A stretch of DNA of 64,000 nucleotides from Halioglobus sp. (GTDB lineage: Bacteria; Pseudomonadota; Gammaproteobacteria; Pseudomonadales; Halieaceae): positions 124,001 to 188,000 of the forward strand of contig JAQWNG010000015.1 of assembly GCA_029246385.1 (NCBI GenBank). Direction: 5' to 3'. Position 1 is the stretch's first letter. Every line of letters starts with the position of its first letter. The translations under genes were made by a program, and so were the position numbers. The notes beneath the pieces were generated by a model, which was not told the origin of the DNA, did no database searches, and saw only the letters and a list, made by a program, of their open reading frames with translations. Below are positions 7,607-45,545 of the stretch, one piece after another.

Positions 7607-7765
7607 ATGCTCTTTGCAACTATAATGCTGGTGACTACTACCAGCGCACAGGCAAAATCAGTAATCTATAAATTCACAGCGGAGTTGGGCGCTAGCGATA
7701 TTACCTACAAGAAGGTCGACAGCGCTGACTATGATTTTATATCTTATCGGCTAGGGTGTTCATAG
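7607..7765 (+). pseudogene. N-terminal signal-peptide fragment of the frameshifted VPxPA-CTERM protein
   Basis: This frame encodes MLFATIMLVTTTSAQAKSV, a signal peptide with an AxA-type cleavage site, then about 35 mature residues, and stops at TAG 7763-7765. The following ORF continues the same kind of protein in another frame. The two frames can be joined only between the stop at 7732-7734 in the downstream frame and 7763 in this one, so an indel lies in that window. In-frame sequence is open upstream to 7505 without another ATG, so the true start may be a rare codon or may also be damaged. Confidence 0.5.
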
Positions 7766-8277
7766 ACTCTGAGCAGCTTGATCTTGACTCTGACCCTGAA
7801 AAAGGTGAGTTTGAGAATGCAACGCTTGACCTGAGTTTCACAATCACCAGCGCCAGCGCCAGCGGAACGATGATCTATTCCAGTCTCGCCGCGACGAATC
7901 AGGATACCGTGCTCAAGCTCAAAAAAAATTACAACGGCAACAACGACAAGATAGAGGTGACTGACGAAAGTGTTCGCGCGACTCTTTACGGGGGCAGCGA
8001 CGTACTTGATTTCGACAAATTCAAACTGAAGCTAGAGGATGACACAATGAATGCTCTTGCGAGTGCCGCTCCGCTTGTAGACGAGTTTATGGTTATCGGA
8101 AACTGGAGTGACAAGAATGAGTATGAAATCAAATGGAAAGATGGCGGCGACTATGTCAAATTGAGAGGGGAATTTGATTCACTAAAGGTAGTGCCGATCC
8201 CCGCTGCGGCGTGGCTATTTGGTTCAGCCATCTTCGGGCTATTTACGGTAGCACGGCGCAAGCACAAGACTGGCTAG
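7756..8277 (+). CDS. VPxPA/PEP-CTERM sorting-signal protein, C-terminal frame of a frameshifted gene
   Basis: A 173-residue frame ending in a textbook exosortase-type sorting signal: VPIPA (146-150), hydrophobic AAWLFGSAIFGLFTV, then ARRKHK. The body is acidic and rich in beta-strand-like alternation, as in exported matrix proteins of this class. As written it starts at GTG 7756 and lacks an export signal; the signal peptide is in the upstream frame (7607-7765), so the intact protein would be about 220 residues. A sigma-54-like promoter lies at 7507. Either the gene is inactivated or there is a sequencing indel. The exosortase itself is not in this window. Confidence 0.6.
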   Translation: MFIDSEQLDLDSDPEKGEFENATLDLSFTITSASASGTMIYSSLAATNQDTVLKLKKNYNGNNDKIEVTDESVRATLYGGSDVLDFDKFKLKLEDDTMNALASAAPLVDEFMVIGNWSDKNEYEIKWKDGGDYVKLRGEFDSLKVVPIPAAAWLFGSAIFGLFTVARRKHKTG

Positions 8278-11605: not shown

Positions 11606-13045
11606 TCAGGCGACATCATATTCCTGCAACCCCGTCGCCTCATGCAGGCGCTTATACTCTTTGAAATTTCCGGCAAAAAGAAAAGAGGCATGCCCTGAGT
11701 CATTCGTGTAATAGCTGTTGCAGTCAGGCGAGCCCCAGCTAAATTTGGCATACTTTTCATCCATCGTATTATTGTAGCTTTGAAACTCTTCCCTCTTCAC
11801 ATCTAGGGATTGCTTGCCAGCAGCGCGCAGATCTGACAACAAACCCACTATAGTTTGGACGTTGCGTTCAGCAGTAATGAAGTAAGAGACATTCAATACC
11901 AAACCGTTTGGACCCACAGCGAAAAAGAAATTGGGAAAGTCGGGCACTGAAATACCCTTGTGAGCTCGCGGCTCATCTCCCATCACAGCACCGAGGTTTG
12001 CGCCGTTACGCCCAATTACATCAAAACGGTCATAATCCAATATCTTATACCCGGTACAGTAGATAATCACGTCGGCCTCGATCTCTCGGCCGCCGCTGGT
12101 GACGATCCCCGAGGGCGTTATTTGATCAAGCCCTTCTCCTATCAATTCGACGTTGTCTCGGTTCAATGCCGGATAAAAGTCATCTGATACCAGGCCTCGC
12201 TTGCAACCGTAACGCGTATCCGGCGTCAGCACCTTGCGCAGTGCGGGATCATCAATGGCTCGATTGATAAACTTCTCTACCATACCCTCAAACTGACTCA
12301 TGCGCTTGTGGCCATTGGTCACCGCATACTCTACTTGACCCATGAGAAGACTCTGCACCCAACGAGTCAGCTTAATCAGCGTTGGAAAATGGCGAAACCG
12401 CCAGCGCTGTCCAGCGCTATACTCTTTGCGCCCTCGAGGCATAATCCAATTAGCGGAGCGCTGTAATACTGTCAGTTGCCCCGCCTTTTTGGCCACCTCC
12501 GGAACAATCTGCACTGCGCTGGCGGCAGAGCCGACCACCACCACACGTTTGCCTTTGAGATCCACATCGTGATTCCAGCGCGTCGCGTGCCAACTATCGC
12601 CCTTGAAACTGTCGATGCCTTCGACGCTAGGGTATAGGGCCGTATGCTGGTTACCCATTGCATTGATGAGAATATCAAAGGCACCGAGCGGACCCGTCTC
12701 AGACTCCAATTGCCATTGACCTGATTGTTCATATTCAGCACGAACAATACGGGTATTGAACTCCATATGCGGATCAAGGCCAAACTCTGTTGCACATTTC
12801 GCGAGATAAGCCTGTATCTCGGCGAAGCCCACGAAGCTCGCACTCCAGTCCGGATTAGGCGCATAAGAAAAAGAGTAGGAGTGGGCCCAGACGTCACAGG
12901 CCAAGCCGGGATAAGAATGTAGACGCCATGTTCCGCCCGGAGCGTCGAGTACGTCGAAGATAGTAAAGTTTGAAAATCCTTGCTTCAGCAGTTCACGACC
13001 CGCGGCAATACCCGCAGGCCCAGACCCTATTATAGCGATACGCAT
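11606..13045 (-). CDS. FAD-dependent monooxygenase, Baeyer-Villiger type
   Basis: A 479-residue flavoprotein monooxygenase using NADPH and O2. The FAD Rossmann motif is GSGPAG at residues 7-12. The Baeyer-Villiger signature FxGxxxHxxxW is exact at 147-157 (FKGDSWHATRW), and a second dinucleotide motif GSAASA lies at 172-177. Such enzymes convert ketones to esters or lactones, or oxidise heteroatoms; plain flavin-containing monooxygenases share part of the motif. It precedes a VOC protein gene on the opposite end of a 170-base gap. A role with ketone intermediates such as steroids is possible but unsupported by linkage. Confidence 0.88.
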   Translation of the reverse strand: MRIAIIGSGPAGIAAGRELLKQGFSNFTIFDVLDAPGGTWRLHSYPGLACDVWAHSYSFSYAPNPDWSASFVGFAEIQAYLAKCATEFGLDPHMEFNTRIVRAEYEQSGQWQLESETGPLGAFDILINAMGNQHTALYPSVEGIDSFKGDSWHATRWNHDVDLKGKRVVVVGSAASAVQIVPEVAKKAGQLTVLQRSANWIMPRGRKEYSAGQRWRFRHFPTLIKLTRWVQSLLMGQVEYAVTNGHKRMSQFEGMVEKFINRAIDDPALRKVLTPDTRYGCKRGLVSDDFYPALNRDNVELIGEGLDQITPSGIVTSGGREIEADVIIYCTGYKILDYDRFDVIGRNGANLGAVMGDEPRAHKGISVPDFPNFFFAVGPNGLVLNVSYFITAERNVQTIVGLLSDLRAAGKQSLDVKREEFQSYNNTMDEKYAKFSWGSPDCNSYYTNDSGHASFLFAGNFKEYKRLHEATGLQEYDVA

Positions 13046-16527: not shown

Positions 16528-16899
16528 ATGACAATAAAACCAGCACAAAAATTCTTCAGACGTTTAGGCGCCTGGGCTTTGATTGCCTTTGCTTTCACAG
16601 CATTTAACACCAGAGCGACCGTTGTCGATCCCAAGGCGGGAAATAGCGAGTTCGGCGGCAGCCTTACACAGGTGAACCGCGGTACAATAGAGACTGAACT
16701 AAATACTAGCGCTGTAAGCACTGCTGCAAGAGATGTGGATGGCGTTTACACCAGTGAATTAGAGCCACTTGGGCAACCCATTAACGCGAACCCAGTCAAC
16801 ACCTCAGCAGTCCCCCTCCCCGCAGCAGCATGGATGTTTTTAGCTGCACTGCTGGGATTAGTGAGCGTCGCCAGGCGCAAACAGAAAAACGAGTCCTAA
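16528..16899 (+). CDS. Short VPLPA-CTERM exported protein
   Basis: A 123-residue protein that is little more than a signal peptide (1-30, ending NTRA), a 64-residue polar linker, and an exosortase-type sorting signal: VPLPA at 95-99, the hydrophobic AAWMFLAALLGLVSV, and ARRKQK. No domain is visible in the linker, which is rich in Asn, Ser, Thr and Asp. Its sorting signal closely parallels that of the frameshifted gene at 7756, so both are likely cargo of one exosortase encoded elsewhere. It may be a secreted matrix or surface polymer component, but function is unknown. Confidence 0.7.
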   Translation: MTIKPAQKFFRRLGAWALIAFAFTAFNTRATVVDPKAGNSEFGGSLTQVNRGTIETELNTSAVSTAARDVDGVYTSELEPLGQPINANPVNTSAVPLPAAAWMFLAALLGLVSVARRKQKNES

Positions 16900-17076: not shown

Positions 17077-17172
17077 TGCATACATCAAAAGCATAGAAAT
17101 CGAATCCTCACCTTTTCGTAAGACTTTGTAGTGGTTGCGAATGGGGCAAGTACATCGCTCGGAGAAAACAAA

Positions 17173-17745
17173 TTGAGCAGACAAACTGAACCCCTTAGCG
17201 AATCGGAACTGCATGAAATTTCAGCTCTGGAAGAAAATCTGTTAACGTGCATAGGCGCCGAAGCTGGCCCATTTTTAGCTTGGGACACAGTTAATCGGTC
17301 AATGATTCGCCATTGGTGCGAAGCGATTGGCGATCAAAACCTCGCCTACAGTGATCCCACAATAGCAGAAACCCTAGGCGCGCCGAAAAACGCCGTCATT
17401 GCTCCGCCGACAATGATGCAGGCATGGACCATGACCGGATTTGGGGGACAGCATCCTTTAGGATCAGATACTCGTGAACAAAATCCCGCCATGCCATACC
17501 TCGACAAATACGGCTACTTAGCCGTTGTCGCGACAAACTGCGAGCAAGAATATCATGAGCCAATTTGCGAAGGAGATAACATCAGCAGCCACTCAATCAT
17601 TGAAACCATTTCCGAGCGCAAAAAAACTGCATTAGGGATTGGCTACTTTGTCACTCAGCTAACTGAATATCAAAACCAGCATGGTGCTACGGTTGGCACT
17701 ATGCGTTTTCGTATTCTCAAATACAAGCCGCTTCTATCCTCTTAA
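17173..17745 (+). CDS. MaoC-type hot-dog hydratase subunit (FAS1-like/ChsH2 N-domain-like)
   Basis: A 190-residue protein of the N-terminal MaoC/FAS1-like dehydratase family, similar to the MaoC half of ChsH2, which with ChsH1 hydrates the enoyl-CoA of a three-carbon steroid side chain. It carries NRSMIRHWCEAIGDQNLAYSDP and APPTMMQAW, typical of this subunit class. TTG at 17173 is preferred because GGAG lies eight bases upstream; GTG at 17131 would add 14 residues. Unlike actinobacterial ChsH2 it lacks the C-terminal DUF35 domain, which is encoded separately at 20672. First gene of the operon. Confidence 0.8.
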   Translation: MSRQTEPLSESELHEISALEENLLTCIGAEAGPFLAWDTVNRSMIRHWCEAIGDQNLAYSDPTIAETLGAPKNAVIAPPTMMQAWTMTGFGGQHPLGSDTREQNPAMPYLDKYGYLAVVATNCEQEYHEPICEGDNISSHSIIETISERKKTALGIGYFVTQLTEYQNQHGATVGTMRFRILKYKPLLSS

Positions 17746-17801
17746 AACCGCTCAAGCCGCAACAGACAAAAAAACAGATAGATTTGAGCAGAGAAAAATT
17801 T

Positions 17802-18917
17802 ATGGATTTTGAAAAAACAGAAACACACCGTTCGATTGAAACACTGTCGCAGCAGGTTTTTTTTGACAAAGTAAACGACGGTTATCACAAAGCAAACCGC
17901 TCCAAAACGGAAGGATTTGACGCTGAGCTTTGGCGTGTACTGGCCGACGCAGGACTGCTTGGTGCAATAGTCAGTGAGGATTTCGGCGGCAGCGGTCTAA
18001 ATTTTTTAGAGGCCAGCGCTATACTCAAAGCTCAAGGGACTGTGCTGGCAAGACTGCCAGTTTGGCAAAGTATTGTTGCAGCGATGACCATTGACACATT
18101 CGGCTCTGTCGCGCAAAAGCAATGGTTGCTGCCTGAGTTGACGGCTGGCGACTCTCATTTTTCAATCGCCCTAGCTGAAGCCGCTCGAAGCGAGATGGCG
18201 TCTGTTCTGTCTATCGCCGACGGTAAAGTCTCAGGCTGCGTCAATGACGTTGCGTTTGCTAAAGATGCCGCGGTCATCCTATTGCCATTAGAAAGCGACC
18301 AAGGCATCGTGTTTTATCTCCTTGACCTCGAGCGTGATGCTGCAGCGATTGAGCTACAAGTCACCAGTAACAATGAGCCACATTACCAGTTAAATTTTCA
18401 TACCATGGACATAGACCCAGCTCGCATTATTAGCGCTTCCTCTGGCTTAGATATGCTTGAATGGGTATTGCAGCGAAGTTATGTCGCAATAGCCACGCTG
18501 CAGTTGGGGGTTGTTGAAGAAGCGATAAAGCGAACCGCTGTCTATGTGAATGGGCGTCATCAATTTAACAAGCCGCTGGCAAGCTTCCAAGCTGTTAGTC
18601 ACCGAGCAGCAAATGGCTATATAGACTATTCGTCATTGCAAGCTTGCATCTGGCTTGCAGCCTATAAGATCAGTGATAACCAGGATGCAACCACTGAATC
18701 GCGCGCGGCAAAATGGTGGGCGTGCGAGGCTGGCCACAGGATAGGACACACGGGACAGCACCTTCATGGTGGTATGGGTGCAGATATCGATTATCCGATT
18801 CATCGATATTTCTTGTGGGCAAAACAGCTCGAATACACGCTGGGCGGCGCTCAGGAGCAACTCGCACAGCTTGGAAAAAATCTGGCGAACAACGAAAATC
18901 TAGGAATTTTTGTATGA
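17802..18917 (+). CDS. Acyl-CoA dehydrogenase, FadE28/ChsE1-like subunit
   Basis: A 371-residue flavoprotein of the acyl-CoA dehydrogenase family. Helical N-domain, central beta domain and C-terminal bundle are complete. GRHQFNKPLASFQAVSH is the FAD/dimer motif, and QHLHGGMGADIDYPIHRYFLWAKQLEYTLGG is the C-terminal block. The wording of the last block resembles FadE28-type subunits, which pair with a second dehydrogenase in alpha2-beta2 enzymes acting on steroid side-chain CoA esters. The ATG at 17802 is preferred to the TTG at 17784. The stop overlaps the next start (ATGA), showing tight coupling. Confidence 0.85.
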   Translation: MDFEKTETHRSIETLSQQVFFDKVNDGYHKANRSKTEGFDAELWRVLADAGLLGAIVSEDFGGSGLNFLEASAILKAQGTVLARLPVWQSIVAAMTIDTFGSVAQKQWLLPELTAGDSHFSIALAEAARSEMASVLSIADGKVSGCVNDVAFAKDAAVILLPLESDQGIVFYLLDLERDAAAIELQVTSNNEPHYQLNFHTMDIDPARIISASSGLDMLEWVLQRSYVAIATLQLGVVEEAIKRTAVYVNGRHQFNKPLASFQAVSHRAANGYIDYSSLQACIWLAAYKISDNQDATTESRAAKWWACEAGHRIGHTGQHLHGGMGADIDYPIHRYFLWAKQLEYTLGGAQEQLAQLGKNLANNENLGIFV

Positions 18918-19324
18918 ATAACGTCGACTTCAGCAGTGTTCAAGTCGGTGATCTGCTGCCGGAATTGAGCATTGATATTACCTCAAAACTGATCACAGGT
19001 GCGGCCATTGCATCACGTGATTATCAAAATGTGCATCATGATCAAGATGCTGCACGAGCGCTTGGATCGCCCAACATTTTTATGAATATACTGACCACTA
19101 ATGGTTTTGTTGGCCGCTATATTACTGACTGGACGGGGCCATCTGGTATTGTCAAGAAAGTATCGATTAGACTGGGCGCGCCGAATTATCCAGGCGATGC
19201 AATGGTGATGATTGGCGAGGTTATCGGCAAAGACGATTCAGATCAGTCCATTGAACTGAAGGTGACAGGTACAAACGCTATTGGTGATCATGTGGTGGGC
19301 AACGTTACAGTACGTCTGAGCTGA
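18914..19324 (+). CDS. MaoC-type hot-dog hydratase subunit (ChsH1-like)
   Basis: A 136-residue hot-dog protein starting within the stop of the preceding gene. It holds the hydratase-2 style catalytic pattern SRDYQNVHHDQDAAR, with the Asp and His expected for water addition to an enoyl-CoA, followed by NIFMNILTTNGFVGRYITDW. This matches ChsH1, the catalytic partner of ChsH2, in size and motif. With the protein encoded at 17173 it should form the heteromeric hydratase of the pathway. Translation is coupled to the dehydrogenase upstream. Confidence 0.82.
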   Translation: MNNVDFSSVQVGDLLPELSIDITSKLITGAAIASRDYQNVHHDQDAARALGSPNIFMNILTTNGFVGRYITDWTGPSGIVKKVSIRLGAPNYPGDAMVMIGEVIGKDDSDQSIELKVTGTNAIGDHVVGNVTVRLS

Positions 19325-19392
19325 TCTTTCGATGCTTAAGAAGGTACCGCCCACCGTCTGTTACAGACTGAGTTAAAGCGAGTTAGATTACT

Positions 19393-20568
19393 ATGTTTCT
19401 TGAACAGAGTGAAAAGCAAGTCGCGCTGCGCGCAGAGATACGATCCTATTTTTCAAAATTAATGACTCCGAAAAACAAGGAAGCGGTGCGTAACAAAGAG
19501 GCGGGGGACGACTATAAAGACATCATTCGTCAGATTGGAAGAGATGGCTGGCTAACGGTCGGCTGGCCCGAAGAGTACGGCGGCAAGGGTTATGGCGCTC
19601 AAGAGTCGCTAATATTTTTTGAAGAGACCCGCATCTCCGGCGCGCCGTTTCCTTTTGTCACCGTCAATACGGTCGGGCCTGCCTTGATCGCGCATGGCGC
19701 CGAAGAGCATAAGTCGTATTTTTTGCCGAAAATAGCAACCGGTGAACTGCATTTTTCTATTGGTTATACCGAACCAACTGCTGGGACTGATCTAGCCTCT
19801 CTGACTACTAGCGCGGTGCTTCAGGGCGATGATTATCTGATTAATGGCAGCAAAATTTACACCACTAGCGCAGAGGCGGCAGATTATGTCTGGCTGGCGG
19901 CACGCACTGACCCTGATGTTACTAAGCGACATAAAGGAATCACCATCTTTATGGTATCCACGGATCAAGCGGGCTACTCGTTTTCGCCTATTAACACCGT
20001 AGGCGGTGCTAGGACAAATGTGACTTATTATGACAACATGCGTTGCCCCGCTAACATGATTGCTGGCGGCTTAAATGAAGGATGGAAACTCGTCACATCA
20101 CAGCTCAATCATGAACGAGTAGGTTTAGCAGCGTGCGGCATCAATGCGCTCGCGATGTACAGCCGCGTTTTAGGTTGGGCACGAGAGGAACAACCTAATG
20201 GTTGCCGCCCGATCGATGTACCTTGGGTTCAGCTCGCTCTGGCTGAATCTCATAATATCCTAGAGGCCATGCGCATAATGAATTGGCAAGCCGCTTGGCA
20301 AAATGATCAGGGCGAGCCTGATCCAGCGTTTTCCTCTGCCATTAAAGCCGGAAGCTCGGAGGCGGTTATCGAAGTTTATCGTTTATTGATGGACGTGTTG
20401 GGAGCGCAGGGCATGCTGCAGCGTGGCAGTGCTGGCGCAATACTGCAAGGAGATCTAGAGAACGAGTACCGCAGCTGGCAAATTAACACCTTTGGTGGTG
20501 GCGTGGCAGAAGTCATGCGCGACCTCGTCGCTCGCTTTGGACTAGACATGATGGCCTACAAGCGCTAG
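19393..20568 (+). CDS. Acyl-CoA dehydrogenase, FadE29/ChsE2-like subunit
   Basis: A 391-residue acyl-CoA dehydrogenase. The FAD-contact segment GYTEPTAGTDLASLTT and the C-terminal YRSWQINTFGGGVAEVMRDLVA are typical of FadE29-like subunits. Together with the FadE28-like protein it probably forms a heterotetramer, as in the actinobacterial igr operon, where only one subunit carries the catalytic base. Spacing to the upstream hydratase gene is 68 bases, so it is likely in the same transcript. Domain content and length are normal. Confidence 0.87.
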   Translation: MFLEQSEKQVALRAEIRSYFSKLMTPKNKEAVRNKEAGDDYKDIIRQIGRDGWLTVGWPEEYGGKGYGAQESLIFFEETRISGAPFPFVTVNTVGPALIAHGAEEHKSYFLPKIATGELHFSIGYTEPTAGTDLASLTTSAVLQGDDYLINGSKIYTTSAEAADYVWLAARTDPDVTKRHKGITIFMVSTDQAGYSFSPINTVGGARTNVTYYDNMRCPANMIAGGLNEGWKLVTSQLNHERVGLAACGINALAMYSRVLGWAREEQPNGCRPIDVPWVQLALAESHNILEAMRIMNWQAAWQNDQGEPDPAFSSAIKAGSSEAVIEVYRLLMDVLGAQGMLQRGSAGAILQGDLENEYRSWQINTFGGGVAEVMRDLVARFGLDMMAYKR

Positions 20569-20671
20569 CAACTCAGTATACCGAGTCTCGCAGCTAGACC
20601 TCTTGGATCTGCCGCAGCTAGCATGCGTTAGAGTCGCGAAAATTATTAAAAGTAAAAAACGAGAGAGTGAC

Positions 20672-21073
20672 ATGGAACAAGCATTACGCCCAAGAATTGG
20701 CATTAACAAGGATACTAAATTTTTCTGGGATGGCTTAGAAGGTGGCCAGTTGCTGATACAGCATTGCCAGAACTGTGATCAGCTACAGCACCCCCCTGGT
20801 GCCTGCTGCAAGTACTGCCAATCGTTCGACTTAGATGCGATAGAATCATGTGGCCTCGGAGAGATTCATAGCTATGTGCGGATGCATCACCCCATTCAAC
20901 CGCCCTTTGAAGCGGGGCACCCCATCATTCTAGTTCAACTCGAAGAAGGCACACGAATCATCGCCGGATTCATTAACAGTGCACCAGAACAATTGAGGAT
21001 CGGTGAGAAAGTGAAGCTCGCTATCACACGATGTGACGACGAAGTAACATTGGCACTGTTTGAGCCGGCCTAG
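20672..21073 (+). CDS. DUF35 OB-fold/zinc-ribbon protein (ChsH2 C-domain-like)
   Basis: A 133-residue protein with a rubredoxin-like zinc ribbon (CQNC at about 32-35 and CKYC at about 47-50) and a C-terminal OB fold. DUF35 proteins partner with SCP2-type thiolases and with Ltp2-type aldolases, where the DUF35 domain of ChsH2 is needed for activity. Here the domain is a stand-alone gene directly before the thiolase/aldolase gene, which fits that partnership. The start at 20672 follows a GAGAGTGAC ribosome site; upstream extension to 20603 is not supported. Confidence 0.85.
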   Translation: MEQALRPRIGINKDTKFFWDGLEGGQLLIQHCQNCDQLQHPPGACCKYCQSFDLDAIESCGLGEIHSYVRMHHPIQPPFEAGHPIILVQLEEGTRIIAGFINSAPEQLRIGEKVKLAITRCDDEVTLALFEPA

Positions 21074-21195
21074 GTGGCCCAGCGATCAAGAGTCGGTAAA
21101 CGCAATCTTATTTTGCGTTATAGACGACTTTTGAGACGGCACTTTGGCGTCCGATTTTCGCCTAATTTCGATGTGATTTAAAACGAAGGCATAAT

Positions 21196-22377
21196 ATGAG
21201 TGATAGAACGATTAGTGGTAAGACGGCTATTGTAGGCATCGGTGCAACAGAATTCTCAAAAAAATCTGGGCGCAGTGAGATGCGGTTGGCGGTTGAGGCC
21301 GTTTTAGCCGCATGCGCAGACGCCGGTATCGCGCCGGCTGAAGTCGATGGCATTAGTACCTATACGATGGATAATAATCCTGAGATGGAAGTGCATCGAC
21401 TAATCGGCGGCAAAGCGCTGAAAATGTTTTCTCGCATTGACTATGGCGGTGGCGCGGCCTGCGGCCCTCTCTTGCAAGCAGCTATGGCTATTTCTACTGG
21501 TATTTGCGACTGCGTGCTGGTTTACCGTGCCATGAACGAGCGTTCAGAATATCGATTTGGTACTGGCGTTGCAGATCGTGGCGCTGACCCTACTCATGAA
21601 ACAGCCGCATTCGGCTGGCATAGTCCTCATGGGCTGATTACACCTGCATCATGGGTCGCGATGGCCGCCACGGCATACTTAGAAAAATATAATGCTACAA
21701 CTATGGATTTAGGGAGAGTGTCCGTTGGCGGTCGCGCAATGGCGGCAAATAACCCAAACGCGTGGTTTTACCAAAAACCTATTACCTTAGAAGATCACCA
21801 AAATAGCCGCTGGATATGCGAGCCACTTCGTCTGCTTGATTGCTGTCAAGAGTCTGATGGCGCCGTCGCCTGCATCGTAGTATCTGCTGAGCGCGCTAAA
21901 GACTTAAAGCAAAAACCGGCCTATATTCGTGGGGCTGCGCAGGGTTCTTGCGATGATCAACAATCAATGACCTCGTATTACAGAGACGATATGACACGTT
22001 TAACGGAATGCGCGTTAGTAGCCGAGCAGCTGTATCGGCAGGCTGAAGTTGGGCCAAACGATATTCAAACCGCGGTTATTTACGATCATTTTACCCCTTA
22101 TGTGTTAATGCAACTGGAGGAATACGGTTTTTGTGGCCGCGGAGAAGCCAAGGATTTCGTTCGTGGTGGAGAGCACCTTATGTCCGGAAAGTTGCCTATT
22201 AATGGCCACGGTGGACAACTGGGAGAAGCTTATATACATGGTATGAACGGCGTTGCAGAGGGCGTTCGCCAAATTCGAGGGCAGTCCGTCAATCAAGTCA
22301 ATAATGTAAAGCATGTTGTCGTTACCGCAGGAACAGGCGTGCCTACCAGCGGCTTACTGCTAGGCGCGGAAAACTAA
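21196..22377 (+). CDS. SCP2-type thiolase-like protein, Ltp2-like side-chain aldolase
   Basis: A 393-residue thiolase-fold protein of the lipid-transfer-protein (SCP-x) class. It has GATEFSKKSG at the N-terminus, a YGGGAACGPLLQAA segment at the usual nucleophile position, YDHFTPYVLMQLEEYGF in the middle and NGHGGQLGEAYIHGMNGV near the end. Relatives called Ltp2 are retro-aldolases that release propionyl-CoA from 17-hydroxy steroid CoA esters, using tyrosines rather than a classical thiolase cysteine. The preceding DUF35 gene supports the aldolase reading. The 3-prime end overlaps the convergent ligase gene by four bases. Confidence 0.84.
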   Translation: MSDRTISGKTAIVGIGATEFSKKSGRSEMRLAVEAVLAACADAGIAPAEVDGISTYTMDNNPEMEVHRLIGGKALKMFSRIDYGGGAACGPLLQAAMAISTGICDCVLVYRAMNERSEYRFGTGVADRGADPTHETAAFGWHSPHGLITPASWVAMAATAYLEKYNATTMDLGRVSVGGRAMAANNPNAWFYQKPITLEDHQNSRWICEPLRLLDCCQESDGAVACIVVSAERAKDLKQKPAYIRGAAQGSCDDQQSMTSYYRDDMTRLTECALVAEQLYRQAEVGPNDIQTAVIYDHFTPYVLMQLEEYGFCGRGEAKDFVRGGEHLMSGKLPINGHGGQLGEAYIHGMNGVAEGVRQIRGQSVNQVNNVKHVVVTAGTGVPTSGLLLGAEN

Positions 22378-23990
22378 CGCTTGATTGTGTATTTAGACGA
22401 CTTTAAATCCCAGGTAGACGTACCAACACCTGCCTCTCTTAGCTTAAATTTCTGCACTTTATTTGTTGGCGTCATGGGCAATGAATCGACAAAATCCATA
22501 TACCTAGGCACGAAATAATACGGCGCGTTGTCATTGATGAAACCCGCCAAGTCCTCATAGCTTATATCTGCTTCGCTTTGCAGTACTATGTTTAGCTTCA
22601 GCTCATGCTCACCCTCAACGGTTGCTAACGCCACACCAAAAGCAGCGACCTCTCTAACAGCTGGATGCCGTATAGCAACGCTCTCCACTTCCATCGTTGA
22701 AATATTTCTGCCCGCGTATCGAATAGCATCTTTCTTGCGATCGACAAAAAATAAAGCGCCGGTTTTAGGATCTTTTCGACCAAGGTCGCCGGTCCGATAC
22801 CATTGCCCAAAAAAGGCCTCCTGAGTAGCGAAGGCGTCGTCAAAATACCCATTAAAAACAACATGCGGCTCTAAGGGCTTGACACATATCTCGCCAATAG
22901 TTTCATCAGCCACTGGCAACCCGGCGTCATCCATAAGACAAACTTCGCTGTCAGCAACGGAGAAGCCTAACGCGTGCAGAGGAATATCCTCACGCTCTTC
23001 TAACTGATTGCATACCAAAAGGCACTCGCTTTGGCCTAAGCCACCACGGGTAATTTTAAGCCCAAAGCGGTGCTCAAACTGCTGCCTTTGTTCTGCCGAA
23101 AGGGGGACAACGCCTGCTGTTTTAAGCGTATTCTTCGCGTCATCAGCCTTCTCTGGTGCATTGAGTAAAAAAACACCCATCGCACCTAACACAAACGTTT
23201 GCGTCGCTTTAAACTCACTAATTCGATCCCAAAAAGATGTCACAGAAAATTTTTGCTCAATCACACAAGGTATACCTTCCAACAGCGCACGATAGATACC
23301 GGTTATCCAGGCGGCTGAATGATATAATGGCAGTGTGTTATAAATGACATCTCCACCCTGAGAGTTGTACTGCTTACTGGCGCCGTATACTATTGCGCGA
23401 ATCCAGCAATTGTAGCTTTGCATAACCCCCTTAGATTTACCCGTCGTTCCAGAGGTCCATAAGATGGAGCAGGTATCACCATAGCTAATATCAGTATGTG
23501 TGACCGTAATGGCCTCTGTTGCCAACAGGCTATTATATGTAATGAAGTTGCGAAGCGCGGGGCTCTCGCTATCACCAACTAGCACAATGGGGTCACTTGG
23601 CAGTTTATCTTGCACTTCTGCCACACGAAGTTCGAGTGAGGCGTCAACCAGCAACACTTTGTAGCGGCAGCGTAGTAAATTATCTAGTAACCAGTCGCCT
23701 TTATACTCAGAGTTAATGGGCGTCCATATCGCGCCCAACTTGTTGACCGCTAAGGCAAGTAACACCATTTCAATATCATTGCCAAGCATCAATGCGACAC
23801 GGTCACTCGCTTCTACGCCAAGGCTGCGCAAGCCACCCGCTAAGTGGTCGGTCAGTGCCTCGACGTCTGAAAAGGTCAATCGCCGCTGGTCCGTCACAAG
23901 GAATTCAGTAGAGCCATTTTCTAGCGACTGCTTATGCAGTATCGCAGGGAACGTTCGACTTCCCACATCGCTTAAATCAACTTGATTCAT
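22374..23990 (-). CDS. Acyl-CoA ligase (AMP-forming)
   Basis: A 538-residue adenylate-forming ligase that would activate a carboxylic acid to its CoA thioester. The P-loop-like TSGTTGKSKGVMQS, the YRTGDLGRKDPKTGALFFVDRKKDAIRYAGRN-type hinge region (read in parts) and the C-terminal MTPTNKVQKFKLRE with the catalytic lysine are all present. It is transcribed convergently toward the dehydrogenase-aldolase operon and is a good candidate for activating its substrate, for example a steroid side-chain acid. Similarity to CaiC-type ligases is also possible. Confidence 0.88.
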   Translation of the reverse strand: MNQVDLSDVGSRTFPAILHKQSLENGSTEFLVTDQRRLTFSDVEALTDHLAGGLRSLGVEASDRVALMLGNDIEMVLLALAVNKLGAIWTPINSEYKGDWLLDNLLRCRYKVLLVDASLELRVAEVQDKLPSDPIVLVGDSESPALRNFITYNSLLATEAITVTHTDISYGDTCSILWTSGTTGKSKGVMQSYNCWIRAIVYGASKQYNSQGGDVIYNTLPLYHSAAWITGIYRALLEGIPCVIEQKFSVTSFWDRISEFKATQTFVLGAMGVFLLNAPEKADDAKNTLKTAGVVPLSAEQRQQFEHRFGLKITRGGLGQSECLLVCNQLEEREDIPLHALGFSVADSEVCLMDDAGLPVADETIGEICVKPLEPHVVFNGYFDDAFATQEAFFGQWYRTGDLGRKDPKTGALFFVDRKKDAIRYAGRNISTMEVESVAIRHPAVREVAAFGVALATVEGEHELKLNIVLQSEADISYEDLAGFINDNAPYYFVPRYMDFVDSLPMTPTNKVQKFKLREAGVGTSTWDLKSSKYTIKR

Positions 23991-44001: not shown

Positions 44002-44118
44002 CAAGGCTGCGGGCGCCAGCCAAAGCAGCCGAAGGCACGGCCAAGGTTAAGTCATATTATTATTTTCTTATTGGCTTACTAGGCATCGGCTACGGCCTTT
44101 GGCTGGCGCCTGGCCTTG
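44002..44118. repeat. Long interrupted palindrome, 26 base pairs in three stems
   Basis: CAAGGC (44002-44007) pairs with GCCTTG (44113-44118), the perfect 14-mer GGCGCCAGCCAAAG (44012-44025) pairs with its complement at 44097-44110, and AGCCGA (44027-44032) pairs with TCGGCT (44086-44091). The small asymmetric internal loops give an extended bulged hairpin with a roughly 53-base apical region. It could be a mobile-element end, a structured RNA or a recombination site. Confidence 0.6.
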
Positions 44119-44190
44119 CCTCGCCTGGGAGGAATTCAGTGGGTTCAGCGTCTTAATGCAGTGCATGTCTATTAACTCATGGAGTGATAC

Positions 44191-44256
44191 ATGGTGGAAC
44201 ATCAGATGCGGTATCGGGAGCATCACCTGCGTAATGGCTGGCTTAAAAAAGTCTGA
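44191..44256 (+). CDS. Short leader frame before the transposase, possibly part of it
   Basis: A 21-codon frame (MVEHQMRYREHHLRNGWLKK plus one residue, then TGA 44254-44256) starts 94 bases before the transposase ATG. It ends at a run of six A (44245-44250). In the +1 frame after that run the sequence continues as SDWPGCDLGRRMM into the transposase, so a single continuous N-terminus may have been split by a one-base change or by programmed frameshifting. Confidence 0.35.
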   Translation: MVEHQMRYREHHLRNGWLKKV

Positions 44257-44284
44257 CTGGCCAGGGTGTGATCTTGGACGACGA

Positions 44285-45265
44285 ATGATGCGCACCGCAT
44301 CGGAAAAGCTGGCCATCATCCGCTTGGTGGAGGACTCAGAACTGTCTGTGCGCCGGACTCTGGATGAGATCAAGATCAGTCGCACCAGCTTCTATCGTTG
44401 GTACAGTGCCTACGAGCAAGGTGGGCTGGATGGCCTCGCGAATCAGGGCCGGTCCTTGCGACGTCACTGGAACCGGATACCCGACTCGGTTCGCAACATG
44501 ATCGTGGAAGTGGCGCTGGACCGGCCCGATCTGACACCCAGAGAACTGGCCTGGCACATTACCGATACCCACGACTACTTTGTGTCGGAATCCAGCGTCT
44601 ATCGCATCCTGAAGGCCCACGATCTGATCACCAGCCCACAGTTTACGGTGATGCGTGCATCAGACAAGTTCCAGCACCCGACCGGTCGGGTGCATGAGCT
44701 ATGGCAAACGGACTTCACCTATTTCAGGGTGATTGGCTGGGGTTGGTACTTCCTGTCGACGATCCTGGATGATTACTCTCGCTACATCATCACCTGGCGC
44801 TTGACAACAAGCATGGCCGCTGCTGATGTCACTGGCACCCTGGAAGATGCACTGGAGGCGACAGGTTTGTCCGAGGCCCGAGTAAAACACAAGCCAAGAC
44901 TACTGTCGGATAACGGGCCCTGTTACATCAGTGGTGAGCTCAAGGATTGGCTAAAAAAGCAGGACATGGAGCATACGCGTGGTGCGCCGTATCACCCGCA
45001 GACCCAGGGCAAGATTGAACGCTATCACCGTTCAATGAAGAACGTGGTCAAGCTGGAACATTACTACTATCCGTGGGAACTGGAAAAGGCTATTGCTGAG
45101 TGGGTCGAACATTACAACCACGAGCGATACCATGAGTCGTTGGACAATGTGACGCCCGCAGATGTTTATGACGGACGGAGAAACGAGATTCTAGATCAAC
45201 GCGCTGTGGTGAAGGCTAGGACGATGACGAAGCGAAAAGTACACAACCTGCGATTAGCAGGCTAG
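44285..45265 (+). CDS. DDE-type transposase (IS3/IS481-like)
   Basis: A 327-residue transposase of the rve integrase-core type. An N-terminal helix-turn-helix (SVRRTLDEIKISRTSFYRWY) is followed by the catalytic core: the first Asp in WQTDFTYF, the second in LLSDNGPCYISG and the Glu in GKIERYHRSMKN. HPQTQGKIERYHRS is typical of this group. The chosen ATG (44285) begins MMRTASEKLAIIRLVE; longer in-frame starts back to 44099 overlap the palindrome and look spurious. It moves DNA by cut-and-paste or copy-paste. No accessory or resistance genes are seen. Confidence 0.85.
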   Translation: MMRTASEKLAIIRLVEDSELSVRRTLDEIKISRTSFYRWYSAYEQGGLDGLANQGRSLRRHWNRIPDSVRNMIVEVALDRPDLTPRELAWHITDTHDYFVSESSVYRILKAHDLITSPQFTVMRASDKFQHPTGRVHELWQTDFTYFRVIGWGWYFLSTILDDYSRYIITWRLTTSMAAADVTGTLEDALEATGLSEARVKHKPRLLSDNGPCYISGELKDWLKKQDMEHTRGAPYHPQTQGKIERYHRSMKNVVKLEHYYYPWELEKAIAEWVEHYNHERYHESLDNVTPADVYDGRRNEILDQRAVVKARTMTKRKVHNLRLAG

Positions 45266-45365: not shown

Positions 45366-45442
45366 TGGCGGAGCGGACGGGACTCGAACCCGCGACCCCC
45401 GGCGTGACAGGCCGGTATTCTAACCAACTGAACTACCGCTCC
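45366..45442 (-). tRNA. tRNA-Asp (GTC)
   Basis: A 77-base cloverleaf on the minus strand. The acceptor stem GGAGCGG pairs with CCGCTCC, the anticodon loop CTGTCAC gives anticodon GTC, and the T-loop reads GGTTCGAGTC. CCA is encoded. It lies 27 bases from tRNA-Val, so both are probably co-transcribed. Confidence 0.97.
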
Positions 45443-45469
45443 ACGGCAGACTTACTTTCTCAGTAATAA

Positions 45470-45545
45470 TGGTGGGTGATGACGGGATCGAACCGCCGAC
45501 CCTCTGCTTGTAAGGCAGATGCTCTACCAGCTGAGCTAATCACCC
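45470..45545 (-). tRNA. tRNA-Val (TAC)
   Basis: A 76-base cloverleaf on the minus strand with acceptor GGGTGAT, anticodon loop CTTACAA (anticodon TAC) and encoded CCA. The D arm (AGCTCAGCTGGTAGAGC) and T arm (GGCGGTTCGATCCCGTC) are canonical. It is upstream of tRNA-Asp in the same direction. Confidence 0.97.

What the first reader, a model, noticed from the sequence alone, without database searches (positions are those of the whole stretch)
17173..23990. Gammaproteobacterial igr-like steroid side-chain operon with ChsH2 split into two genes
Seen: hot-dog hydratase subunit, FadE28-like, ChsH1-like, FadE29-like, DUF35, SCP2-type thiolase/aldolase and a convergent CoA ligase in one tight block, some with overlapping codons. 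Established: in actinobacteria this set (ChsE1/E2, ChsH1/H2, Ltp2) removes the last three carbons of the steroid side chain, and ChsH2 is one MaoC-DUF35 fusion; its DUF35 part activates Ltp2. Inference: here the MaoC half (17173) and DUF35 half (20672) are separate genes, each next to its partner.
Basis: partly seen in the sequence, partly recalled or inferred. Interest (0 to 1): 0.78.

Follow-up and report, generated by a model that had tools for sequence, protein, structure and literature searches.

The report
Steroid side-chain operon with split ChsH2
A marine bacterium carries the known gene set that cuts the last three carbons off a steroid side chain, but the protein that normally ties two of its enzymes together is made as two separate proteins, which offers a natural test of whether that tie is needed.

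Summary
At 17131-22377 (+) lie six genes whose best solved-structure matches are the parts of the C3 side-chain system: ChsH2 (MaoC half), ChsE1, ChsH1, ChsE2, ChsH2 (DUF35 half) and Ltp2, with a convergent CoA ligase at 22374-23990. Key residues fit: aldolase YDHF plus second Tyr, ChsH1 Asp/His dyad, inert ChsH2 MaoC (His to Tyr), C4 zinc DUF35. The genome has homologs of steroid-nucleus genes. The split is real: of 116 non-redundant YDHF-type aldolase loci (chosen by similarity, not at random), 98 have a fused MaoC-DUF35, 9 have both halves as separate genes, 6 show only a lone DUF35, 3 show neither. It looks like a derived fission in one small clade (MAG titles: Haliea, Halioglobus), plus a case in a myxobacterial MAG; three same-genus genomes hold a fused form. 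Corrections: the MaoC half is not beside ChsH1 (ChsE1 lies between); only DUF35 sits beside its partner; and the genome has a second, fused set with a YDAF aldolase. Artificially separated halves are already published as working. New variant of a known kind.

The parts
17131..17745 (+). ChsH2 MaoC half (H2M) as a separate gene; catalytically inert, steroid-binding hydratase subunit; likely start TTG 17173
   Evidence: PDB hits 4w78_A and 4wnb_A, E 7e-32 (the table names 4wnb_A ChsH2 and 4w78_A ChsH1, a swap between the two entries; the long chain is taken as ChsH2); Tyr59 in place of the catalytic His; model pLDDT 93.3, Foldseek top 4w78
17802..18917 (+). ChsE1/FadE28-like acyl-CoA dehydrogenase subunit
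   Evidence: PDB best hits 6wy8_A and 4x28_D (E 3e-63, 3e-59); the names ChsE1/ChsE2 for these chains are recalled
18914..19324 (+). ChsH1-like catalytic hydratase subunit; ATGA overlap with E1
   Evidence: PDB best hits 4w78_B and 4wnb_B, E 2e-32 (4wnb_B named ChsH1, 4w78_B named ChsH2, swap as above); dyad Asp36 and His41, counted from ATG 18914 (35 and 40, whose query lacks the first residue)
19393..20568 (+). ChsE2/FadE29-like acyl-CoA dehydrogenase subunit
   Evidence: PDB best hits 6wy8_B and 4x28_A (E 6e-116, 1e-114)
20672..21073 (+). ChsH2 DUF35 half (zinc ribbon plus OB fold) as a separate gene, the presumed aldolase partner
   Evidence: PDB best hit 6ok1_B ChsH2(DUF35), E 6.5e-34; Pfam zf-ChsH2 and OB_ChsH2_C above cut-off; zinc cysteines 32, 35, 46, 49; model pLDDT 90.5, Foldseek top 6ok1_B
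21196..22377 (+). Ltp2-type steroid aldolase
   Evidence: NCBIfam PRK07855 642 bits, cut-off 469; PDB 6ok1_A E 6.5e-157; YDHF at 296-299 and Tyr346
22374..23990 (-). Acyl-CoA ligase, convergent, overlapping the aldolase gene by 4 bases; specificity unknown
   Evidence: Pfam AMP-binding; best NCBIfam PRK06155, below cut-off; beside the set in L047-L049, L085-L087 and L176-L180, not seen in L050-L052
17048..17076 (+). Promoter-like site upstream of the operon (weak evidence)
   Evidence: 10 of 12 consensus matches; 8 sites found in the region against a mean of 8.9 in shuffles

Best explanation
This is a working module for removing the last C3 (propionyl) side chain of a steroid-CoA ester. The ligase may make the CoA ester; ChsE1-ChsE2 introduces the C17-C20 double bond; ChsH1 with the free ChsH2 MaoC subunit adds water at C17; Ltp2 with the free DUF35 subunit cleaves off propionyl-CoA by retro-aldol reaction and leaves a 17-keto steroid. 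Its ancestor had a fused MaoC-DUF35 ChsH2. In this lineage the gene broke at the linker and the DUF35 gene came to stand directly before its aldolase partner. So hydratase and aldolase are no longer covalently tied and probably work as two separate heteromers, the aldolase pulling the unfavourable hydration forward by removing its product. Shown here: the genes, their homology, intact key residues, the split and its conservation. Supported by trees: its direction. Inferred: substrate, complexes, untethered coupling.
For: Matches to the ChsH2, ChsE-type, ChsH1, ChsH2(DUF35) and Ltp2 structures; Ltp2 curated model above cut-off; YDHF/Tyr346 and C4 zinc finger, unlike Sal/Shy. Fission: separate genes conserved in the clade. 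DUF35 tree: 11 lone window-type DUF35 rows group together (SH-aLRT 89), next to fused L053 (92) and then fused rows of three same-genus genomes (91), apart from the other 11 lone DUF35 rows (quick tree, few columns). Aldolase tree: 9 split rows and fused L053 form a clade (100/98) inside fused Proteobacteria. Both halves fold alone with confidence and match ChsH2 chains. Genome: homologs of KshA, KstD, HsaC, HsaD/E/F/G, IpdA and FadA5. Precedent: in Comamonas testosteroni TA441 separately expressed MaoC and DUF35 halves kept both activities (PMC12502768, abstract and passages); one Halieaceae isolate grew on cholesterol (PMC5790920 passages).
Against: The genome has a second igr-like set with fused ChsH2 (C22:59413-65151) next to a FadA5-like thiolase and a P450, so the window set may not be the main cholesterol route. 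No substrate can be read from sequence. No complex was modelled; the subunits may still form one non-covalent assembly. The KstD-, HsaC- and HsaD-like hits lie below curated cut-offs, HsaA was not searched, and HsaB gave only a sub-threshold hit. The TA441 paper adds that efficient removal seems to depend on proper complexes. In one congener (G776, L179) ChsE1 and ChsE2 are missing from the locus. Direction of change depends on the root, which is not inferred.
Confidence: 0.77

Rival explanations
1. The module acts on another steroid or terpenoid CoA ester (a different ring system or side chain), while the fused set on C22 does the usual sterol C3 step. Two parallel sets are known in Rhodococcus jostii (chs for cholesterol, cas for bile acid).
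For: Two complete sets in one genome; the C22 set sits with a FadA5-like thiolase and a P450; 17 of the 18 same-genus genomes listed have an Ltp2-like match at E<=1e-100, but only 6 of 18 the window type. RHA1 double set: PMC12502768 Introduction, figure legend.
Against: The window aldolase is 63-66% identical to Comamonas and Pseudomonas homologs and has all Ltp2 residues, while the C22 aldolase is the deviant one (YDAF).
Confidence: 0.3
2. The split makes no difference to assembly: H2M and DUF35 still associate non-covalently, so the usual hydratase-aldolase super-complex forms.
For: The halves are co-encoded in one gene block and conserved together.
Against: In published complexes the DUF35 domain of the ChsH2 chain is what links the hydratase to Ltp2 (passages of PMC11321319 and PMC12329534); no H2M-DUF35 contact was tested here.
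Confidence: 0.25
3. The lone DUF35 is not a fission product but a recruited stand-alone DUF35, like those paired with other aldolases.
For: Lone DUF35-aldolase pairs exist in another clade (L073, L075, L077, L078, L080), and M. neoaurum ChsH4 is a lone DUF35 paired with aldolase Atf1 (PMC10398937 passages).
Against: In the DUF35 tree the window type groups with fused ChsH2 of L053 and of same-genus genomes, apart from those lone DUF35s.
Confidence: 0.05
4. Assembly or annotation artefact: a frameshift in a normal fused gene.
For: Some relatives are fragmented MAGs.
Against: The halves lie 2.9 kb apart with three intact genes between; the same arrangement is seen in other genomes; dN/dS against L085 is low for both halves.
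Confidence: 0.01

Closest known systems
igr operon ChsE1E2-ChsH1H2-Ltp2 of Mycobacterium tuberculosis, and the Thermomonospora curvata enzymes
   Same: Same six functions by homology, same diagnostic residues, best structure matches
   Different: ChsH2 is two genes here; gene order H2M-E1-H1-E2-DUF35-Ltp2; convergent CoA ligase
ORF40-44 of Comamonas testosteroni TA441 (PMC12502768)
   Same: Proteobacterial homolog set; Comamonas relatives fetched here have the order H2-E1-H1-Ltp2-E2, so H2M-E1-H1 is shared
   Different: ORF40 is a natural MaoC-DUF35 fusion; the separation there was made by the experimenter
Shy-Sal of C. testosteroni (PMC11321319, PMC12329534)
   Same: Steroid hydratase and aldolase linked through a DUF35
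   Different: Shy is one DUF35-MaoC protein with its own catalytic dyad; Sal has YDCY; zinc ligand set C3H1; C5 side chain
Atf1-ChsH4 of Mycolicibacterium neoaurum (PMC10398937)
   Same: Stand-alone DUF35 protein (138 aa) with a steroid aldolase
   Different: Different branch of the pathway; no ChsH1/H2 genes named in that operon in the passages read

Membership tests
igr-type C3 steroid side-chain module | Ltp2 aldolase with YDHF motif and second catalytic Tyr | tested here: met
   YDHF at 296-299 and Tyr346; residue roles from PMC12329534 passages
igr-type C3 steroid side-chain module | ChsH1 with Asp/His dyad and ChsH2 MaoC with the His replaced | tested here: met
   H1 Asp36 and His41 (35 and 40 in the query); H2M Tyr59 in place of His, Asp54 kept
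igr-type C3 steroid side-chain module | Two ChsE-type dehydrogenase subunits | tested here: met
   Best PDB hits are the two different chains of 6wy8 and of 4x28
igr-type C3 steroid side-chain module | ChsH2 as one MaoC-DUF35 polypeptide | tested here: not met
   Two genes 2.9 kb apart
igr-type C3 steroid side-chain module | DUF35 with C4 zinc finger Cx2Cx10Cx2C | tested here: met
   C32, C35, C46, C49
igr-type C3 steroid side-chain module | Host degrades the steroid nucleus | tested here: inconclusive
   Homologs present: KshA, KstD-like, HsaC-like, HsaD/E/F/G-like, IpdA-like, several below curated cut-offs, HsaA not searched; growth not testable
igr-type C3 steroid side-chain module | Heteromeric complexes and activity on C3-side-chain steroid-CoA | not testable with these tools
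   No complex prediction or assay available
Shy-Sal (C5) module | Single DUF35-MaoC hydratase with dyad; aldolase YDCY; C3H1 zinc site | tested here: not met
   Separate inert MaoC and C4 DUF35, YDHF
Atf1-ChsH4 pair | Lone DUF35 partnered with an aldolase of that lineage | not tested
   Sequence of Atf1/ChsH4 not fetched; only paper passages read

The most novel reading that the evidence does not exclude
Fission has freed both halves of ChsH2 as exchangeable subunits: the free DUF35 and free MaoC subunit can also partner with the second (fused ChsH2, YDAF aldolase) set in the same cell, so that hydratase and aldolase work as a mix-and-match pair of untethered enzymes with a broadened substrate range.
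Probability: 0.1. Interest if true: 0.65.

Novelty: new variant of a known kind. Interest (0 to 1): 0.42.

Why it matters
Whether the hydratase passes its product directly to the aldolase in ChsH1-ChsH2-Ltp2 is left open in print (PMC12329534 passages). Here nature has cut the tie, kept both halves, and left three genomes of the same genus with a fused form: a ready-made comparison for kinetics and for structural work on aldolases of interest for making steroid drugs.

Tried and rejected
Rate decoupling after fission: pairwise identities suggested that the MaoC half diverges 1.4-2.4 times faster than DUF35 in split genomes against about 1.0 in fused ones (medians in three bands). Clade by clade the effect is not specific: the split clade ranks first of 15 clades at 1.91, but the fused clade of the same genus has 1.83 and Mycobacterium 1.67. 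Dropped.

Horizontal transfer by base composition: operon GC 0.487 against 0.505 for the window, within the range of 6.9-kb windows (0.479-0.527). No signal.

Promoter and terminator scan: promoter-like count at chance level; not used.

Recruited stand-alone DUF35: disfavoured by the DUF35 tree. Assembly artefact: excluded by gene order and conservation.

Number of fissions is not settled: 2 changes of split/fused on the careful aldolase tree, 3 on the later quick tree with more rows; fused L053 sits unresolved at the base of the split clade. Rows were thinned: one search used 95 of 121 collected sequences; one search dropped L074 and L079 and the repeats L176 and L180 (104 rows left).

Class survey: 2 of 369 genomes at E<=1e-140, the own genome and G514, which is fused.

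Ring genes, results against or weak: NCBIfam gave no hit at E<=1e-20 for the IpdA- and IpdB-like proteins, and none at E<=1e-30 for the C21:177098 KshA-family protein; PF01144 found one gene only; the C22 KshA also matched a 4beta-methylsterol monooxygenase model weakly (79 bits, cut-off 600). In the 14 control genomes HsaB rang in 9, HsaD in 13, HsaC (TIGR03213) in 5, PF01144 in 6 and KshA_C in 1.

Literature: searches list no paper whose listed title, abstract start or read passages describe a natural split of ChsH2. One legend in PMC12502768 (Fig 1B, note 5) mentions a DUF35 gene in some compared organism; the figure is not held, so I cannot tell which. Most subscription papers are not in the library, so absence from print is not shown. 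The two papers disagree on DUF35: PMC11321319 says it does not seem important for activity, PMC12502768 finds it indispensable for the aldolase.
Full report
The observation. Searches show six genes on the plus strand at 17131-22377 and a convergent ligase at 22374-23990. Searched one at a time against solved structures, the six match the parts of the C3 side-chain system: ChsH2 MaoC, ChsH1, ChsH2 DUF35, Ltp2 and the two chains of the ChsE-type dehydrogenases 6wy8 and 4x28 (the names ChsE1/ChsE2 for these chains are recalled). The molecule names of the two ChsH1-ChsH2 entries are swapped between 4w78 and 4wnb in the tables; I take the long chain as ChsH2, as in 4wnb. NCBIfam gives the aldolase as PRK07855 lipid-transfer protein, 642 bits over a cut-off of 469; no hit shown for the other six proteins of the block reaches its cut-off (the ligase list is cut at 25 of 105). 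Pfam finds the ChsH2 zinc ribbon and OB fold in the lone 133-residue protein and only the hot-dog region in the other half.

Residues. Papers read in passages give the diagnostic residues. The window aldolase has YDHF at 296-299 and Tyr346, as in TcLtp2 and unlike Sal (YDCY, Gln). In one search (window row and some repeats included) the ChsH1 dyad is kept in 111 of 111 rows (window Asp36, His41); the His position of H2M is Tyr in 99 of 104 rows (4 gaps, 1 His); each of the four DUF35 zinc cysteines is kept in 106 of 114 rows.

The split. The MaoC and DUF35 genes are 2.9 kb apart with ChsE1, ChsH1 and ChsE2 between them. Among 116 non-redundant loci with a YDHF-type aldolase, collected by similarity to the window aldolase and so not a random sample, 98 have a gene that matches both MaoC and DUF35 within 7 kb, 9 have both halves as separate genes, 6 show a lone DUF35 with no MaoC half in view (L049, L050, L052, L074, L096, L134; L096 begins at the contig end), and 3 show neither (L140, L156, L177). 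In 7 of the 9 the DUF35 gene lies directly before the aldolase gene (window, L047, L048, L085, L086, L178, L179); in L051 and the Myxococcales MAG L153 the two halves are neighbours, in the order MaoC, DUF35, ChsH1, Ltp2. The aldolase tree of 95 rows places 9 window-type split rows with one fused row, L053, in a clade of support 100/98, nested among fused Proteobacteria. The DUF35 tree (quick, few columns) groups the 11 window-type lone DUF35s (SH-aLRT 89), then fused L053 (92), then fused rows of three genomes of the same genus (91), and keeps the other 11 lone DUF35s apart. With the root outside, the split is thus a fission of a fused ancestor. It is shared by the window genome, congeners, and MAGs titled Haliea, Halioglobus and Cellvibrionales.

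The window's gene order can be compared with the order H2(fused)-E1-H1-Ltp2-E2 of Comamonas and others: H2M-E1-H1 is unchanged; DUF35 and Ltp2 stand together after E2. In G776 (L179) the block is H2M-H1-DUF35-Ltp2 with both dehydrogenase genes absent from the locus.

Both halves look like functional genes: against L085, dN/dS is 0.18 (H2M), 0.05 (DUF35), 0.02-0.12 for the other five (dS was saturated against the other eight relatives). Both fold alone with confidence (pLDDT 93.3 and 90.5), and the top Foldseek hits are ChsH1-ChsH2 chains of 4w78 and 6ok1_B.

The genome. G000 (3.3 Mb, 45 contigs) has three KshA-family genes over the Pfam cut-off (the C22 one matches KshA structures, E 3e-55), KstD-like genes at C22:35024 and C42:111999 (below cut-off), an HsaC-like dioxygenase at C42:198991 (below cut-off), a block of HsaD/E/F/G-like genes near C42:13-17 kb (4-hydroxy-2-oxovalerate aldolase and acetaldehyde dehydrogenase above cut-off, the hydratase and the hydrolase below), and a CoA-transferase-like gene at C4:28037 whose best PDB hits are 6co6 and 6con (E 2e-68; the name IpdA is recalled). 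Its neighbours read as IpdB-, IpdC- and IpdE-like; IpdB has no family hit, IpdC only FabK and IpdE2 its own model, both below cut-off. HsaA was not searched; HsaB gave one sub-threshold hit. The 9,10-seco route is thus likely, not shown. One Halieaceae isolate that grew on cholesterol is reported (PMC5790920 passages).

A second set. C22:59413-65151 holds aldolase, ChsH1, fused ChsH2, ChsE2 and ChsE1 homologs, beside a FadA5-like steroid thiolase over its curated cut-off (606 against 515 bits) and a P450. Its aldolase has YDAF in place of YDHF. Of the 18 same-genus genomes listed (own included; 66 genomes of the family without a match are not listed), 17 have at least one Ltp2-like match at E<=1e-100; 6 carry the window type (90% identity or more), and three others carry a 64-65% type that is fused.

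How it works. The chemistry follows from the known families; what differs is the link. In published systems the DUF35 part of the ChsH2 chain ties hydratase to aldolase, and removal of the product by the aldolase pulls an unfavourable hydration (PMC11321319 and PMC8399759 passages). In TA441, expressing the two halves separately kept both activities, though the author adds that efficient removal seems to depend on proper complexes (PMC12502768 abstract). So the split set most likely works as two untethered heteromers. This is inference: no complex or activity was tested.

Verdict. Observation confirmed; interpretation right in the main but with corrections. A new architecture of a known module, most useful as a natural control for the tethering question.

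Noticed in passing
L038:19413-20000 and L039:1-5151 (G000 C22:59413-65151): A second full igr-like set with fused ChsH2 whose aldolase has YDAF, neither Ltp2 (YDHF) nor Sal (YDCY); YDAF aldolases (12 non-redundant loci, this one not counted) form their own clade with the YDPF row, including a myxobacterial MAG.
   Followed up: partly
L073:5467-7052, L075:9129-10747, L077:1579-3164, L078:2280-3887, L080:8902-10511: YDAF-type aldolases each directly preceded by a lone DUF35 gene, a further natural stand-alone DUF35-aldolase pair.
   Followed up: partly
L153:5295-7894: Myxococcales MAG with separate neighbouring MaoC (190 aa) and DUF35 (137 aa) genes, a probable independent fission.
   Followed up: partly
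L179:6592-9470: Same-genus genome G776 has the split set without ChsE1 and ChsE2 between the genes.
   Followed up: no
L045:3388-11896 (G000 C42:191388-199896): Another catabolic cluster 43-52 kb downstream of the operon: enoyl-CoA hydratase-like genes, CoA ligase, two thiolase-like and two DUF35-like genes (read by eye), and the genome's only TIGR03213/HsaC-like hit.
   Followed up: no
window 16528-16899 and 7756-8277: Two small proteins ending in VPLPAAAWMF/VPIPAAAWLF plus hydrophobic stretch plus RRK, which look like VPLPA/PEP-type C-terminal sorting signals (recalled motif; no Pfam hit).
   Followed up: no
window 44099-45265: Transposase/integrase-core gene (Pfam rve, HTH_32) next to two tRNA genes at 45366-45545.
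   Followed up: no
window 11606-13045: Flavin monooxygenase (Pfam FMO-like; possible Baeyer-Villiger type) 4 kb upstream of the operon on the other strand.
   Followed up: no
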